This document shows, piece after piece, positions 7,576 through 21,269 of a stretch of DNA of 21,269 nt. The notes beneath the pieces were generated by a model. The model was not told the origin of the DNA and did not search any database. It saw only the letters and a program-made list of their open reading frames with translations. The stretch spans positions 1-21,269 of the IMG/VR virus record IMGVR_UViG_3300027782_000428; one strand, 5' to 3'. Made by a program: the position numbers and the translations under genes. Source of the stretch: a virus. Numbering within the stretch: the stretch's first letter is position 1; the number at the start of each line of letters is the position of its first letter.

Positions 7576-8376
7576 ATGAAAGAAAAAGGAACAGGAATGC
7601 CGATTAATCAGGACGAAATCTCTCACTATTTAAAAGATATTAGGAAGATTAAAGTTATGACACCTGAAAGGGAAAAAGAATTGTCAAAACTTATGATGTC
7701 AGATACTTTAACTGATAACCAACGAAGACAGGTTGAACAAGAATTATTGGTTGGTAATTTGCGATTTGTCATTACTGTTGCAAAACAATATCAAAATCAA
7801 GGTTTGGACTTTCCTGACTTGGTTGCCGAAGGTAATTTGGGATTGTTGAAAGCAATTAAAAACTTTGATTGGAGTAAAAACTTGAGGTTTATTTCATATG
7901 CGGTTTGGTGGGTTAAACAATCAATCATCCAATCATTGAATGATAACGCAAGAACAATCAGGTTACCGGTAAATGTGGTTCAAGATCTTCACAGGGCGAA
8001 GAAAGAAATTCAAAACAATGGTGGAAAACTATCCGATAAATTCGCTTCATTACCATCAATGATTGATTTGGATATGAATATCAATGATGAAGGAGATACA
8101 TTCATAGATATGATTCCAAATATGGACGCTGACGCTCCTGATGCGGCGTTTAACACTGCGGACATCCTTAAAGAAAAATTAATAAATACTCTCAATGTTT
8201 TGGACGAAAGAGAACGAGTAATCATTGAGGATTACTTTGGGCTATCCGGCACACCAAGAACTTTGGAGGACATTGGTTCGGATTTTGGTTTGACGAAAGA
8301 GAGGGTTCGTCAGATAAAACAAAAGGCTTTAAGGAAATTAAGAAACGAAACCACTGAATTATTTGATTACTTATAA
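7576..8376 (+). CDS. RNA polymerase sigma factor, sigma-70 family, RpoD-like
   Basis: A 266-aa sigma factor. A region 1.2-like segment (DEISHYLKDI, about 13-22) is followed by region 2 with NLRFVITVAKQYQNQGL (61-77), DLVAEGNLGLLKA (81-93) and the -10 recognition helix FISYAVWWVKQSI (105-117). Region 4 (about 205-262) has a clear helix-turn-helix, TLEDIGSDFGLTKERVRQIK. Sequence and compact size are close to Bacteroidetes primary sigma factors, which lack most of region 1. Region 3 is markedly shortened and diverged (about 130-200). It probably directs host RNA polymerase to phage promoters of Bacteroidetes type. The ATG at 7597 is preceded by AGGAACAGGA, so translation may start there, giving 259 aa. 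Confidence 0.95.
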   Translation: MKEKGTGMPINQDEISHYLKDIRKIKVMTPEREKELSKLMMSDTLTDNQRRQVEQELLVGNLRFVITVAKQYQNQGLDFPDLVAEGNLGLLKAIKNFDWSKNLRFISYAVWWVKQSIIQSLNDNARTIRLPVNVVQDLHRAKKEIQNNGGKLSDKFASLPSMIDLDMNINDEGDTFIDMIPNMDADAPDAAFNTADILKEKLINTLNVLDERERVIIEDYFGLSGTPRTLEDIGSDFGLTKERVRQIKQKALRKLRNETTELFDYL

Positions 8377-17888: not shown

Positions 17889-17995
17889 TTAAATAATATA
17901 GATAATGATATCACCTTTAACAATTTTAGTAAAGTGATTTAAATCAAAATCTTCTCTAATAATAATACTATCGTTTTTGGTGATTAGAATTTCAT
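17889..17995 (-). pseudogene. Possible frameshifted micro-gene upstream of the CxxC protein
   Basis: Reading the minus strand, ATG AAA TTC at 17995 runs at once into TAA, but a one-base insertion in the AAA run would give an open frame of about 36 residues containing ITKNDSIIIREDFDLNHF and ending 3 nt before the next gene's start (17885). The open stretch without a proper start, and the tight spacing, suggest a small gene broken by a one-base deletion or a sequence error. An unusual start codon is another option. Confidence 0.3.
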
Positions 17996-18010
17996 ATTGT
18001 TATAAATATG

Positions 18011-18039
18011 AAAAAACCCCATCTTTTTGGGACGGGGTT
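18011..18039 (-). terminator. Minus-strand terminator ending the candidate ncRNA
   Basis: Read on the minus strand, AACCCCGTC (18039-18031) pairs with GATGGGGTT (18023-18015) with a single mismatch around a 7-nt loop, and TTTTTT occupies 18016-18011. There is no T run on the plus-strand side, so the direction is clear. Confidence 0.85.
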
Positions 18040-18165
18040 ACAATTATTTCATTCCTAAAATTGGGGTAATCAACCCAGACCGATTCACCCAGTCATTAGT
18101 GGTCAGTTTGTTTAATAGGATTCTGACAACCTGTTGATAACATTGATTACTCAATCACATCAACG
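18011..18165 (-). ncRNA. Candidate structured non-coding RNA, or attenuated leader RNA
   Basis: On the minus strand a consensus promoter is followed by about 155 nt with no ORF above 15 codons, closing in a terminator. Predicted hairpins in order: (1) GUUGAU/AUCAAC with an inner AUUGA/UCAAU stem capped by a GUAA tetraloop and separated by a 3x3 internal loop (18133-18164); (2) GUCAG/CUGAC (18102-18127, 16-nt loop); (3) GACUG/CGGUC with a 7-nt loop (18078-18094); (4) GGGU/ACCC with a UGAUU loop (18064-18076); (5) the terminator (18011-18039). The first stem begins within about one base of the predicted transcript start. It may be a free RNA, or the leader controlling the small genes at 17709-17995. 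Confidence 0.62.
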
Positions 18166-18168
18166 ATA

Positions 18169-18199
18169 CAAAGATAGTAAAGTTTTTGGTTCTGCCAAA
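18169..18199 (-). promoter_or_regulatory. Perfect Bacteroidetes-consensus promoter on the minus strand
   Basis: On the minus strand TTTG (18199-18196), exactly 19 bp, then TATCTTTG (18176-18169): the best match to TTTG-N19-TAnnTTTG in the window. Predicted start about 18165. It overlaps the inverted AAAACTTT repeats described separately. Confidence 0.85.
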
Positions 18200-18221
18200 A
18201 CTTTTTTAAAAAAAACTTTAC
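18177..18221. repeat. Inverted AAAACTTT repeats, likely operator for the adjacent regulator
   Basis: GTAAAGTTTT (18177-18186) is an exact inverted copy of AAAACTTTAC (18212-18221). Between them AAAACTTT occurs again (18197-18204), so a second palindrome forms: AAAGTTTTTGG (18179-18189) with CCAAAACTTT (18195-18204) around TTCTG. They cover the spacer and -33 of the minus-strand promoter and lie 43 bp from a divergently placed ribbon-helix-helix gene. Confidence 0.6.
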
Positions 18222-18263: not shown

Positions 18264-18428
18264 ATGGCAACAAAAGGAAAACCTTATAAGGAAGAAAAAG
18301 ATAAAAAAGTTAAATACGGAATTAGTATTGATAGATATCTTTTTGATAAGATGAAGAATGAGGAAATAAGTGTTTCTAAATTTATTCAGAATTTAGTTAA
18401 AGAGTATTATGACGGGAAAAATTTGTAG
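18264..18428 (+). CDS. Ribbon-helix-helix (Arc/MetJ-type) DNA-binding regulator
   Basis: A 54-aa protein read directly from the sequence. A basic N-terminal arm (about 1-16) leads to VKYGISIDRYLFDKM (a beta strand then helix A) and ISVSKFIQNLVKEYY (turn and helix B), the layout of ribbon-helix-helix dimers, which bind inverted repeats in the major groove. It is divergent from the candidate ncRNA promoter. A TATATTTA element at 18239-18246 gives a possible weak promoter with a short leader. The last 20 nt overlap the homing endonuclease gene and its C-terminal residues (DGKNL) may have been replaced when that gene inserted. Confidence 0.75.
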   Translation: MATKGKPYKEEKDKKVKYGISIDRYLFDKMKNEEISVSKFIQNLVKEYYDGKNL

Positions 18429-19254
18429 TAAATGTGGGATTGAGAAGGAATTAGAAGAATATTATAAAAAAAATAAAACCACTGATGATACTAGAGAATC
18501 TTGTATTTTATGTGTTAAAGATTATAATAAAAAACAAATTATAAAAAGAAAAGATGTTAATTATATTAAGAAGCGTAAATATTTTTATAACGAAGATTTC
18601 TTTGAAAGAATTGATAATGAAGAAAGGGCATATTTTTTAGGGTTTTTATTCGCTGATGGTTGTGTTATTAATAATGTGGAAAAATATAGATATCAAGTAA
18701 CTTTAAAATTACATACAAAAGATAGACATATTTTGGAATCTTTTATTGTGAGTGTTAATGGTGAAATGCCCATATGGAAACATGGTCAGAGAGAGATGGT
18801 GGAAATTCATTTTTCGGGTAAAAAAATGGTTAACGATTTAATTAATTTAGGAGTAACCTCAAATAAAACATTTACATTACAATACCCCATCATTGATGAA
18901 ACATTGGAAAGACATTTTTTAAGAGGTTATTTTGATGGTGATGGATGTATTAGAATTAAAGAAGATAAAAGAGATAATACAAAAAGAGGTGATTTAAGAA
19001 TTGTTAGCGGATCAATAGATATGTTAAATAAAATAAACGAAAGAATGAATGTTTTGTTTGGTGTGAACACAAATAAGTTATACGGACCAAAAGATAAAGA
19101 TTATAAATATATTGGTTGGTCAGGTATGTCAGATATTGAAAAAATTTACAATGGATTTTATTCTGAATCTGTCTTGTTTTTAAATAGAAAAAAGATTATC
19201 TTTGATGAGGTAATTGATATAATAAAAGATAAATATAAATACAGAAAAAAATAA
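18409..19254 (+). CDS. LAGLIDADG homing endonuclease with an N-terminal zinc finger
   Basis: A 281-aa protein with two LAGLIDADG motifs, FLGFLFADGC (about 76-85) and FLRGYFDGDGC (about 170-180), so it can act as a monomer. Residues 6-35 hold two Cys pairs (CSKC, CILC) forming a zinc finger that often guides such nucleases. It makes a double-strand break in an allele lacking the gene and is copied in by repair. It is free-standing: there is no intron-like flanking sequence. The codon pattern looks more A+T-rich than its neighbours, in keeping with transfer. Its ATG lies inside the RHH gene, and its stop is 5 nt before the methyltransferase. Confidence 0.9.
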   Translation: MTGKICSKCGIEKELEEYYKKNKTTDDTRESCILCVKDYNKKQIIKRKDVNYIKKRKYFYNEDFFERIDNEERAYFLGFLFADGCVINNVEKYRYQVTLKLHTKDRHILESFIVSVNGEMPIWKHGQREMVEIHFSGKKMVNDLINLGVTSNKTFTLQYPIIDETLERHFLRGYFDGDGCIRIKEDKRDNTKRGDLRIVSGSIDMLNKINERMNVLFGVNTNKLYGPKDKDYKYIGWSGMSDIEKIYNGFYSESVLFLNRKKIIFDEVIDIIKDKYKYRKK

Positions 19255-19259
19255 TAATT

Positions 19260-20099
19260 TTGGTTTCATATATAGGAGGTAAGAGTAAAATTGGAAAGTG
19301 GATAGTCCCTTTCTATGATAAAAATATGGAAACATATGTAGAGTGCTTCGGAGGTGCGTACTGGTGTTTCTTTAATATGGATTTAAAACAATTTCCAAAT
19401 CTAAAAAAAGTTGTTTACAACGACTTTAATCCACTAAACTACAATTTATTCAAGTGCATTCAAAACCCAACAGAATTATTGAATGCAATTAATGCGATTG
19501 AGTGTCAAAAATTTGGTGAATTTCCTACACCACCGATTTACAAAGAACAATTCATCAGGTTTCAGGCTGAAATTTTTGGTGAGGGTTTCAGTGTAGAACC
19601 TGGTAATTATGAGGTTGCTGCGAAATATGTTTACATTCTAACACAAGTTTTTAGTGGTAGTAAACCTGAAACAAGTTCATTTATTGATTTAAAGGGTAAG
19701 TATAAATCAAAGTATTTAACATTTAGAGATAAATTGTCAAAACCTGATTGGATTGAACATTTTTTAAAAATTACCGACGTTGAGAATATGGATTTTGAGG
19801 ATGTGATTAAAAAATATGATTCACCGAACACATATTTTTATGTTGATCCACCTTATTGGAAAACAGAGAATTATTATTCAAACCACGACTTTGACAGAAA
19901 AGATCACGAAAGGTTGGCAAAAGTATTAAATGAGGTTCAGGGTAAATTTACTTTATCTTATTATGACTTTGAACAATTACATTTTTTCTTCCCCGACAAC
20001 ATATACAGGTGGGAAAGAAAGGAGTTTGCAAAGGCTGCCGCGGCAAAAAAAGGAACCAAACAAAATATGGGTGAGGAACTTCTCATAATGAATTATTAA
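19260..20099 (+). CDS. D12-class N6-adenine DNA methyltransferase (Dam-like)
   Basis: A 279-aa methyltransferase. Family features in order: the N-terminal SYIGGKSKIGKWIVPF (about 3-18), the S-adenosylmethionine site ECFGGAYW (28-35, a diverged FxGxG), VYNDFNP (about 57-63), and the catalytic DPPYW (196-200) for N6-adenine transfer. Length is usual for the family (about 270-280 aa). No ATG is available; the start must be TTG at 19260 or a rarer codon, just after the homing endonuclease stop. This suggests the original ATG was lost at insertion. T4 encodes a related Dam; the target is probably GATC-like but cannot be read from the sequence. Confidence 0.92.
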   Translation: MVSYIGGKSKIGKWIVPFYDKNMETYVECFGGAYWCFFNMDLKQFPNLKKVVYNDFNPLNYNLFKCIQNPTELLNAINAIECQKFGEFPTPPIYKEQFIRFQAEIFGEGFSVEPGNYEVAAKYVYILTQVFSGSKPETSSFIDLKGKYKSKYLTFRDKLSKPDWIEHFLKITDVENMDFEDVIKKYDSPNTYFYVDPPYWKTENYYSNHDFDRKDHERLAKVLNEVQGKFTLSYYDFEQLHFFFPDNIYRWERKEFAKAAAAKKGTKQNMGEELLIMNY

Positions 20100-20148: not shown

Positions 20149-21269
20149 ATGAAATTAGTAAAAATTTTATCATCAGTAATTGTAGAAAATGTTGATCCAA
20201 GATTTAGGTTAACGGAAATATCAAATAAATTAATGAATCAACTTGTTGTTAAATTCCAAGAAGGAACTGAAGATTCGGAGGACGACATCAAAAGTTATAT
20301 TAACGATTTTGACAAATATAAAAACGGATTGGCATCAGACAAACGAGACATTACAAAATATACATATGATCAACTTAAATCTTTAATTCAATCTAAAAGA
20401 GTTAAGAAAGAAGAAGGTGATATATATAAGACATATATGAAAGGTCCTGGTAAAGGTTCTGATCAAAGACAAGTTAAGTCAATGATTAAAAAATTCTTGG
20501 AGATAAGAAATTATTTACCTGAACCAAATAGAGATATTATGAAATATCCTTATTTGAAATTAGTGGAGGTAATCCAAAATAAATTTGGAGGACTTATTAC
20601 TAAAGCGGCTTTTGAAAAATTTAAAAGAGAAAGAAATGATTTAACAAATGAACAAATCCTTTCATACATTGAAAGATATGTTGATTTATACGATAGATTG
20701 GAACCTAATACTCCACCAATTATGTTAATGTCATTTGATGATTTAGAAGCATCATTGGATCACTTACCTGATGGTGATGATGTTCCGCAAAAGAAAGGTG
20801 ATGACTTTCAAGGGATAGAAAACATTTACGACAAAGATAATTTATACATCTTCAAACCAAATGGTAAAGAACAATGTATTAGATTAGCACACGGAAGACC
20901 TTGGTGTACATCAAGAGTTGGTGGTGGTAACTTATACTACAACTATCGTTTGGAAAACAACCTAACACTTTATTATGTTATTGATAAAGACAAACCATTT
21001 GACGATTTAAACTTTGCGGTGGTTATCTTGGTTGATGAATATGGAAGAAAAAGAATTGCCGATGGTAAAAATATGGCGGGAGGATTCTCGGGACATAAAA
21101 CTGAAAGTTGGGATGTAATATCTTCAAAAGTTCCTAAATTAGCGGACAAAGAATATTTATTCACTGCCGATCCACTTACAGATAGAGAAAAGGAATTATT
21201 AAGAAGATATAAAAATATCAATGTGAATGAGGATGCGGTTCAAGAACTTGGTTCAGTTGAAGACGCTGA
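20149..21269 (+). CDS. Long phage protein with a WCTSR motif (3' end beyond the window)
   Basis: Open from ATG 20149 to the last base: 373 complete codons and two bases, with no stop in the window. The N-terminal 230 residues are charged and helical. Around residues 238-300 is a conserved-looking block: LYIFKPNGKEQCIRLAHG, PWCTSRVGGGNLYYNY, LYYVIDKD and VVILVDEYGRKRIADG. From memory, similar WCTSR-VGGGN blocks start large proteins in big phages, often ahead of repeat-rich regions; the function is unknown. No signal peptide. Preceded by a 49-bp A+T-rich gap with no clear promoter. Confidence 0.82.
   Translation, partial: MKLVKILSSVIVENVDPRFRLTEISNKLMNQLVVKFQEGTEDSEDDIKSYINDFDKYKNGLASDKRDITKYTYDQLKSLIQSKRVKKEEGDIYKTYMKGPGKGSDQRQVKSMIKKFLEIRNYLPEPNRDIMKYPYLKLVEVIQNKFGGLITKAAFEKFKRERNDLTNEQILSYIERYVDLYDRLEPNTPPIMLMSFDDLEASLDHLPDGDDVPQKKGDDFQGIENIYDKDNLYIFKPNGKEQCIRLAHGRPWCTSRVGGGNLYYNYRLENNLTLYYVIDKDKPFDDLNFAVVILVDEYGRKRIADGKNMAGGFSGHKTESWDVISSKVPKLADKEYLFTADPLTDREKELLRRYKNINVNEDAVQELGSVEDA

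What the first reader, a model, noticed from the sequence alone, without database searches (positions are those of the whole stretch)
18011..18165. Orphan promoter-terminator unit encoding a multi-hairpin RNA on the minus strand
The window's best Bacteroidetes promoter (TTTG, 19 bp, TATCTTTG) drives about 155 nt with no meaningful ORF, ending in a real terminator. The first hairpin starts at the predicted transcript start and has two exactly paired stems, a symmetric 3x3 internal loop and a GNRA-type GUAA tetraloop; three more hairpins precede the terminator. This order suggests a functional small RNA of the phage, or a regulated leader (attenuator or riboswitch) for the two small genes downstream. 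I recognise no known RNA family.
Basis: partly seen in the sequence, partly recalled or inferred. Interest (0 to 1): 0.82.

Follow-up and report, generated by a model that had tools for sequence, protein, structure and literature searches.

The report
Phage RNA orphaned from protein partner
This phage carries an undescribed, strongly conserved structured small RNA that in relatives always sits beside, and evolves together with, one small protein gene; here that gene has been deleted and only the RNA remains, so the pair is probably a new phage RNA-protein system rather than an ordinary gene leader.

Summary
At window 18165-18011 (minus) a Bacteroidota-type promoter (TTTG-N19-TATCTTTG) drives a ~155-nt structured RNA that ends in an intrinsic terminator. 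It matches no Rfam family. Related phage contigs give about 18 distinct copies of its ~90-nt core, some as tandem units. The stems keep pairing through compensatory changes. Between the window and a 304-kb relative the RNA is 96.0% identical, against 82-85% for neighbouring genes (63% at third codon positions).

The key result lies outside the window. All 28 contigs that encode a ~160-aa family of unknown function carry this RNA next to it. The RNA is usually upstream, with the terminator between. In a distant group it is downstream and convergent, so it is not a leader. RNA and protein distances correlate (r=0.80); distances to other neighbouring genes correlate less (0.19-0.49). In the window a 386-nt deletion removed the protein gene and left the RNA untouched. 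A second lineage also lost the gene and kept the RNA. Protein without RNA was never seen.

Best reading: the RNA is half of an accessory RNA-protein cassette and probably binds and controls the protein, as a type III antitoxin would. The protein matches no known toxin, so this is analogy, not membership.

The parts
18169..18203 (-). Promoter: TTTG (18199-18196), 19-nt spacer, TATCTTTG (18176-18169), inside an imperfect dyad AAGTTTTGGCAGAACCAAAAACTT (18203-18180)
   Evidence: 39 of 40 bp identical in the 304-kb relative
18133..18165 (-). P0: 5' hairpin starting about at the predicted transcript start, GUAA tetraloop
   Evidence: z -3.5; sequence differs in other lineages but a 5' hairpin remains in most
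18043..18132 (-). Conserved RNA core (91-position covariance model R1); the unit that occurs once or twice in relatives
   Evidence: R1 98.1 bits, E 6.7e-26 (the window is in the training set); untrained relatives 41-58 bits
18102..18132 (-). P2 GUCAG/CUGAC (18127-18123 with 18106-18102) and possible H-type pseudoknot P1 AGG/CCU (18132-18130 with 18119-18117); alternative: extended P2
   Evidence: P2 has double changes C-G to U-A and A-U to G-C; P1 nearly invariant, so undecided
18077..18095 (-). P3 hairpin (18095-18090 with 18082-18077), 7-nt loop GGUGAAU
   Evidence: All 6 pairs have changes on both sides; 5 of 6 pairs formed in 20/20 sequences
18064..18076 (-). P4 hairpin GGGU/ACCC
18047..18061 (-). 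P5 small hairpin followed by invariant GAAA
   Evidence: Three pairs formed in 20/20, two of them with common double changes; GAAA in 20/20
18010..18039 (-). Intrinsic terminator
   Evidence: present in relatives with a different stem sequence
17889..17993 (-). 3' remnant of the partner gene (~160-aa family); the rest removed by a 386-nt deletion between short direct repeats (GAAATT)
   Evidence: 110 of 111 nt identical to the intact gene in L006
17709..17885 (-). 58-aa small membrane-type protein, the next gene; not RNA-linked
   Evidence: Distances correlate weakly with the RNA (r 0.30)

Best explanation
The locus encodes a stand-alone structured small RNA, made from its own host-type promoter and ended by its own terminator. 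It is one half of an accessory RNA-protein cassette of T4-like jumbo phages of Bacteroidota. Shown by comparison: the RNA folds into P0-[P1/P2-P3-P4-P5]-terminator; the core can be duplicated; it is always the neighbour of a ~160-aa protein gene; it travels and diverges with that gene; it outlives the gene. Inferred: the RNA binds the ~160-aa protein and holds it inactive, in the manner of a type III antitoxin. Strong RNA synthesis and a terminator before the gene would keep RNA in excess of protein. In the window the protein gene is deleted, leaving an orphan RNA that may still neutralise the protein made by co-infecting or resident relatives.
For: (1) All 28 contigs with the protein have the RNA within about 700 nt. 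L086-L095 (10 contigs) were found by the protein alone and were not used to build the RNA model. (2) Two arrangements keep the pair together: RNA upstream on the same strand, or RNA downstream and convergent. (3) RNA-protein distance correlation r=0.80 over 10 lineages, 0 of 2000 permutations as high; RNA with the 58-aa gene 0.30, dnaJ 0.19, Dam 0.49; protein with the 58-aa gene 0.08. (4) One-way loss: the protein was lost with RNA kept in the window and in L028/L043 (same junction; RNA core differs at only 2 of 87 positions while DnaJ is 77% aa identical). RNA loss with protein kept was never seen, as expected for an antitoxin and a toxin. (5) Whole-cassette absence in L007 and L009, whose flanks are nearly identical, shows an accessory module. 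(6) Covariation. (7) Promoter, 1-2 tandem RNA units, terminator, then a start codon about 20-25 nt further on, is the type III layout (PMC5086642; AbiF with two RNA motifs, PMC12373285).
Against: The protein has no recognisable toxin, RNase or RNA-binding family and no solved structural match; the only nuclease-like hint is a weak viral match to a T4 RegB-type endonuclease (rank 12, E 0.19). Many copies have a single unit, and units are 57-92 nt rather than the 34-50 nt reported for ToxIN, TenpIN and CptIN. The convergent arrangement is not known in type III systems. No transcript, binding or toxicity data exist. Tight linkage alone could create part of the distance correlation.
Confidence: 0.42

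Rival explanations
1. Trans-acting phage small RNA whose main target is a host or phage mRNA or a host RNA-binding protein; the linkage to the ~160-aa gene reflects co-regulation or a helper protein rather than inhibition.
For: The RNA is its own transcription unit and is kept, highly conserved, in two lineages that lost the protein.
Against: Does not explain 28/28 co-occurrence in several loci and two orientations, nor why RNA divergence tracks the protein rather than the other neighbours. The most conserved parts are structured, with no obvious long single-stranded seed.
Confidence: 0.25
2. Functional ribonucleoprotein: the RNA is an essential cofactor or guide/scaffold of the ~160-aa protein, possibly a protein loaded into the virion. 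Its N-terminus, e.g. MKLLSIFKNLISES, resembles the T4 capsid-targeting sequence (recalled from general knowledge).
For: Same linkage and co-divergence evidence; the phages encode a T4-type prohead protease.
Against: A cofactor RNA should decay after the protein is lost, but it stays conserved. The N-terminal motif is not significantly enriched among the phage's proteins (4 against a shuffled mean of 1.0, maximum 5).
Confidence: 0.2
3. Cis-acting leader: attenuator or riboswitch whose terminator controls the downstream gene.
For: Promoter, conserved structure, terminator, then a gene start about 20-25 nt on, in the L006, L011, L017, L020, L086 types.
Against: In L087-L095 the RNA is downstream and convergent. 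It persists after gene deletion. The terminator stem sequence is not conserved. Different genes follow it in L044/L046.
Confidence: 0.06
4. Chance promoter-terminator arrangement with no function.
For: The window-level fold score is only moderate (z -2.44).
Against: Conservation far above neighbouring genes, double compensatory changes, persistence across many contigs.
Confidence: 0.01

Closest known systems
Type III toxin-antitoxin systems (ToxIN, CptIN, TenpIN)
   Same: One promoter, structured RNA in tandem units (possible H-type pseudoknot with A-rich loop), intrinsic terminator, then a ~160-aa protein gene; the RNA can outlive the protein.
   Different: Protein not homologous to ToxN/CptN/TenpN; units 57-92 nt, 1-2 copies; convergent arrangement in some relatives; toxicity unknown.
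AbiF/Abi_2 RNA-protein system (phage-encoded example in C. difficile, PMC12373285)
   Same: Phage-carried module: non-coding RNA with two motifs and a terminator before a protein gene.
   Different: The protein is not an Abi_2 member (no Pfam hit); RNA sequence and structure unrelated as far as tested.
AvcID (deaminase toxin with RNA antitoxin, PMC10511110)
   Same: A structured RNA paired with a single protein outside the ToxN fold.
   Different: No deaminase family found in the ~160-aa protein; phage-borne here; a terminator lies between the two parts.
Phage pseudo-ToxI RNA that suppresses host ToxIN (phage TE escape mutants, reviewed in PMC5086642)
   Same: A phage genome carrying antitoxin-like RNA without the toxin gene.
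   Different: Here the orphan arose by deletion from a phage-borne pair; no matching host system was found.

Membership tests
Type III toxin-antitoxin (ToxIN/CptIN/TenpIN) | Toxin homologous to ToxN, CptN or TenpN endoribonucleases | tested here: not met
   No Pfam hit, no PADLOC hit, no solved-structure match by sequence or fold
Type III toxin-antitoxin (ToxIN/CptIN/TenpIN) | Tandem array of short RNA repeats | tested here: inconclusive
   Two units in L017, L025, L022, L031, L044, L046; one in the window and others; 57- or 92-nt spacing
Type III toxin-antitoxin (ToxIN/CptIN/TenpIN) | Intrinsic terminator between RNA and downstream protein gene in one operon | tested here: inconclusive
   Seen in the upstream types; not in the convergent L087-L095
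Type III toxin-antitoxin (ToxIN/CptIN/TenpIN) | Protein toxic alone and neutralised by the RNA | not testable with these tools
   Needs expression experiments
AbiF/Abi_2 | Abi_2 domain protein | tested here: not met
   No Pfam family up to E 1
Riboswitch or attenuator leader | RNA lies in the 5' leader of the regulated gene | tested here: not met
   Downstream and convergent in L087-L095
Known Rfam families | Match at the gathering score | tested here: not met
   0 matches for the window and six relatives; only chance-level hits with relaxed thresholds

The most novel reading that the evidence does not exclude
A new class of phage RNA-controlled effector: the structured RNA keeps a ~160-aa protein silent inside the infected cell, the protein is loaded into virions through a capsid-targeting-like N-terminus, and it acts RNA-free in the next cell. 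Orphan RNAs, as in the window, would be immunity genes against phages that still carry the protein.
Probability: 0.1. Interest if true: 0.92.

Novelty: new variant of a known kind. Interest (0 to 1): 0.72.

Why it matters
It adds an undescribed RNA family with compensatory-change support, plus a protein family that appears to depend on it, in poorly studied jumbo phages of Bacteroidota. If the pair works as an RNA-controlled toxin or effector, it would widen RNA-antitoxin systems to a new protein family and a new gene arrangement. The natural losses of the protein with RNA retained make the immunity idea directly testable in a laboratory strain.

Tried and rejected
Known RNA family: no Rfam match. 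tRNA/tmRNA: none. Small conserved peptide inside the RNA: rejected because of 1-nt insertions and deletions. In L087 and L093 an upstream reading frame (MSKKR..NPNTSKDG) looked conserved, but its changes also fit compensatory pairs in GNRA-loop hairpins and L094 has a stop in it. Intron or homing-endonuclease RNA: rejected, because L006 has the RNA without the endonuclease and L007 the endonuclease without the RNA. Pseudoknot: possible but not proven; P1 is nearly invariant and an extended P2 explains the same bases. Copies in annotated phages or plasmids: none. Copies in bacterial genomes: one exact-pattern scan gave a single weak hit in a Lachnospiraceae MAG (18 bits), taken as chance; the pattern misses some RNA types, so this search is limited. 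More copies per genome: none beyond tandem units. Capsid-targeting motif enrichment: inconclusive. Structure of the protein: two models (pLDDT 75), no significant PDB match.

Full report
CHECK OF THE OBSERVATION. The fold is moderately better than shuffled sequence (z -2.44), and the first hairpin is clearly better (z -3.5). Rfam has no match. Single-sequence evidence alone would be modest; the comparative evidence is what makes the case.

A FAMILY OF RNAs. Exact-pattern scans of viral contigs and a covariance model (R1) gave about 18 distinct versions of a 56-58-nt unit plus a 3' part. Several loci have two units in tandem (L017, L025, L022, L031 at 57-nt spacing; L044, L046 at 92-nt spacing). 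A hand alignment of 20 distinct cores shows P3 formed at 5 of 6 pairs in 20/20 sequences, with G-C, A-U and U-A types exchanging. P5 forms in 20/20 with double changes. P2 has double changes in the distant members. P4 is almost invariant apart from one-sided G-U changes and one G-U to A-U exchange. On the 14 closer sequences all six P3 pairs and three P5 pairs have changes on both sides; the structure pairs in 94.7% of cells, against 29-46% when partners are slid by 1-3 columns. The AGG/CCU pseudoknot P1 is almost invariant and therefore unproven; an extended P2 competes with it.

CONSTRAINT. Window against the 304-kb relative (L011): RNA without terminator 96.0% (5 of 125 differ), promoter 39/40, dnaJ 83.0%, Dam 82.1% (third codon positions 62.9%), 58-aa gene 84.7%. 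Window against L006: RNA 100%, genes 96-98%.

THE PARTNER GENE. In the closest relatives a ~160-aa gene starts about 20-25 nt after the terminator. A profile scan with the protein returned 28 contigs, and every one has the RNA beside the gene. Ten of these (L086-L095) were found only through the protein and score 41-58 bits with a model that had never seen them. In L087-L095 the RNA is downstream and convergent, separated by a shared terminator region. In L042, L044 and L046 one other gene lies between RNA and protein in a different gene neighbourhood (for L044). A cis-leader role cannot explain these arrangements.

CO-DIVERGENCE. Over 10 lineages at the same locus, RNA distances correlate with ~160-aa protein distances (r 0.80, 0 of 2000 permutations). 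The correlation is weak with the next gene on the far side of the protein (58 aa, r 0.30) and with dnaJ (0.19), and moderate with Dam (0.49). Protein distances do not follow the 58-aa gene (0.08) or dnaJ (0.03). RNA and protein behave as one evolutionary unit.

LOSS PATTERN. In the window 386 nt between short direct repeats are gone, which leaves the start codon region, the last ~35 codons of the protein gene and an intact RNA. L028 and L043 share another deletion that leaves about 12 C-terminal codons; their RNA cores differ at 2 of 87 positions although their DnaJ proteins are only 77% identical and the adjacent small genes 59% at the nucleotide level. L007 (dnaJ product 100% identical) and L009 lack RNA and protein altogether. 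Protein without RNA was not seen. This one-way loss fits an antitoxin-toxin or immunity relation better than an obligatory cofactor.

MECHANISM. Shown: an own transcription unit by sequence signals, conserved structure, partnership with the protein, accessory status. Inferred: transcription in infection, RNA-protein binding, inhibition of the protein, immunity role of the orphan RNA. The analogy is type III toxin-antitoxin systems (PMC5086642), AbiF with its two-motif RNA (PMC12373285) and AvcID (PMC10511110). Membership is not claimed, because the protein has no homology to their toxins.

LIMITS. All relatives are uncultured contigs; hosts are inferred from promoter type only. Several contigs are near-identical, so independent lineages are fewer than contigs. 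The bacterial genome scan used one strict pattern. The distance correlation can partly reflect tight linkage, though the equally close 58-aa gene does not show it.

Noticed in passing
window 18264-19254; L007 1803 onward; L022 2104-3049; L043 2560-3373: Different homing-endonuclease genes (LAGLIDADG in the window and L043, an HNH-like one in L022), each with a ~54-71-aa Arc-like (ribbon-helix-helix type) companion, occupy the same gap between Dam and the RNA promoter in different phages, suggesting repeated homing into this spot.
   Followed up: partly
L007 and L009 around the dnaJ/58-aa genes: Alleles lacking the whole RNA + ~160-aa cassette with nearly identical flanks; a presence/absence polymorphism of the cassette.
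   Followed up: partly
L009 7199-8050 and L043 1682-2539: The Dam-type methyltransferase has a different N-terminal part but a conserved C-terminal part compared with the window's 19260-20099, which looks like recombination inside the gene.
   Followed up: no
window 18180-18203 (minus); also position 114733 of the 304-kb relative: The promoter -33 region lies in an imperfect dyad (AAGTTTTGGCAGAACCAAAAACTT); a similar TTTTGGCA..TATCTTTG promoter occurs elsewhere in the relative, possibly a phage early-promoter class.
   Followed up: partly
window 20149-21267; L006 4775-6619: A 614-aa protein (complete in L006) with leucine-rich-repeat-like C-terminus and an N-terminus (MKLVKILSSVIVEN) resembling that of the ~160-aa family; possible shared capsid-targeting signal.
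   Followed up: partly
window 7576-8376: Phage-encoded sigma factor with regions 1.2, 2 and 4, in a phage group whose relatives also encode a T4-type prohead protease.
   Followed up: no
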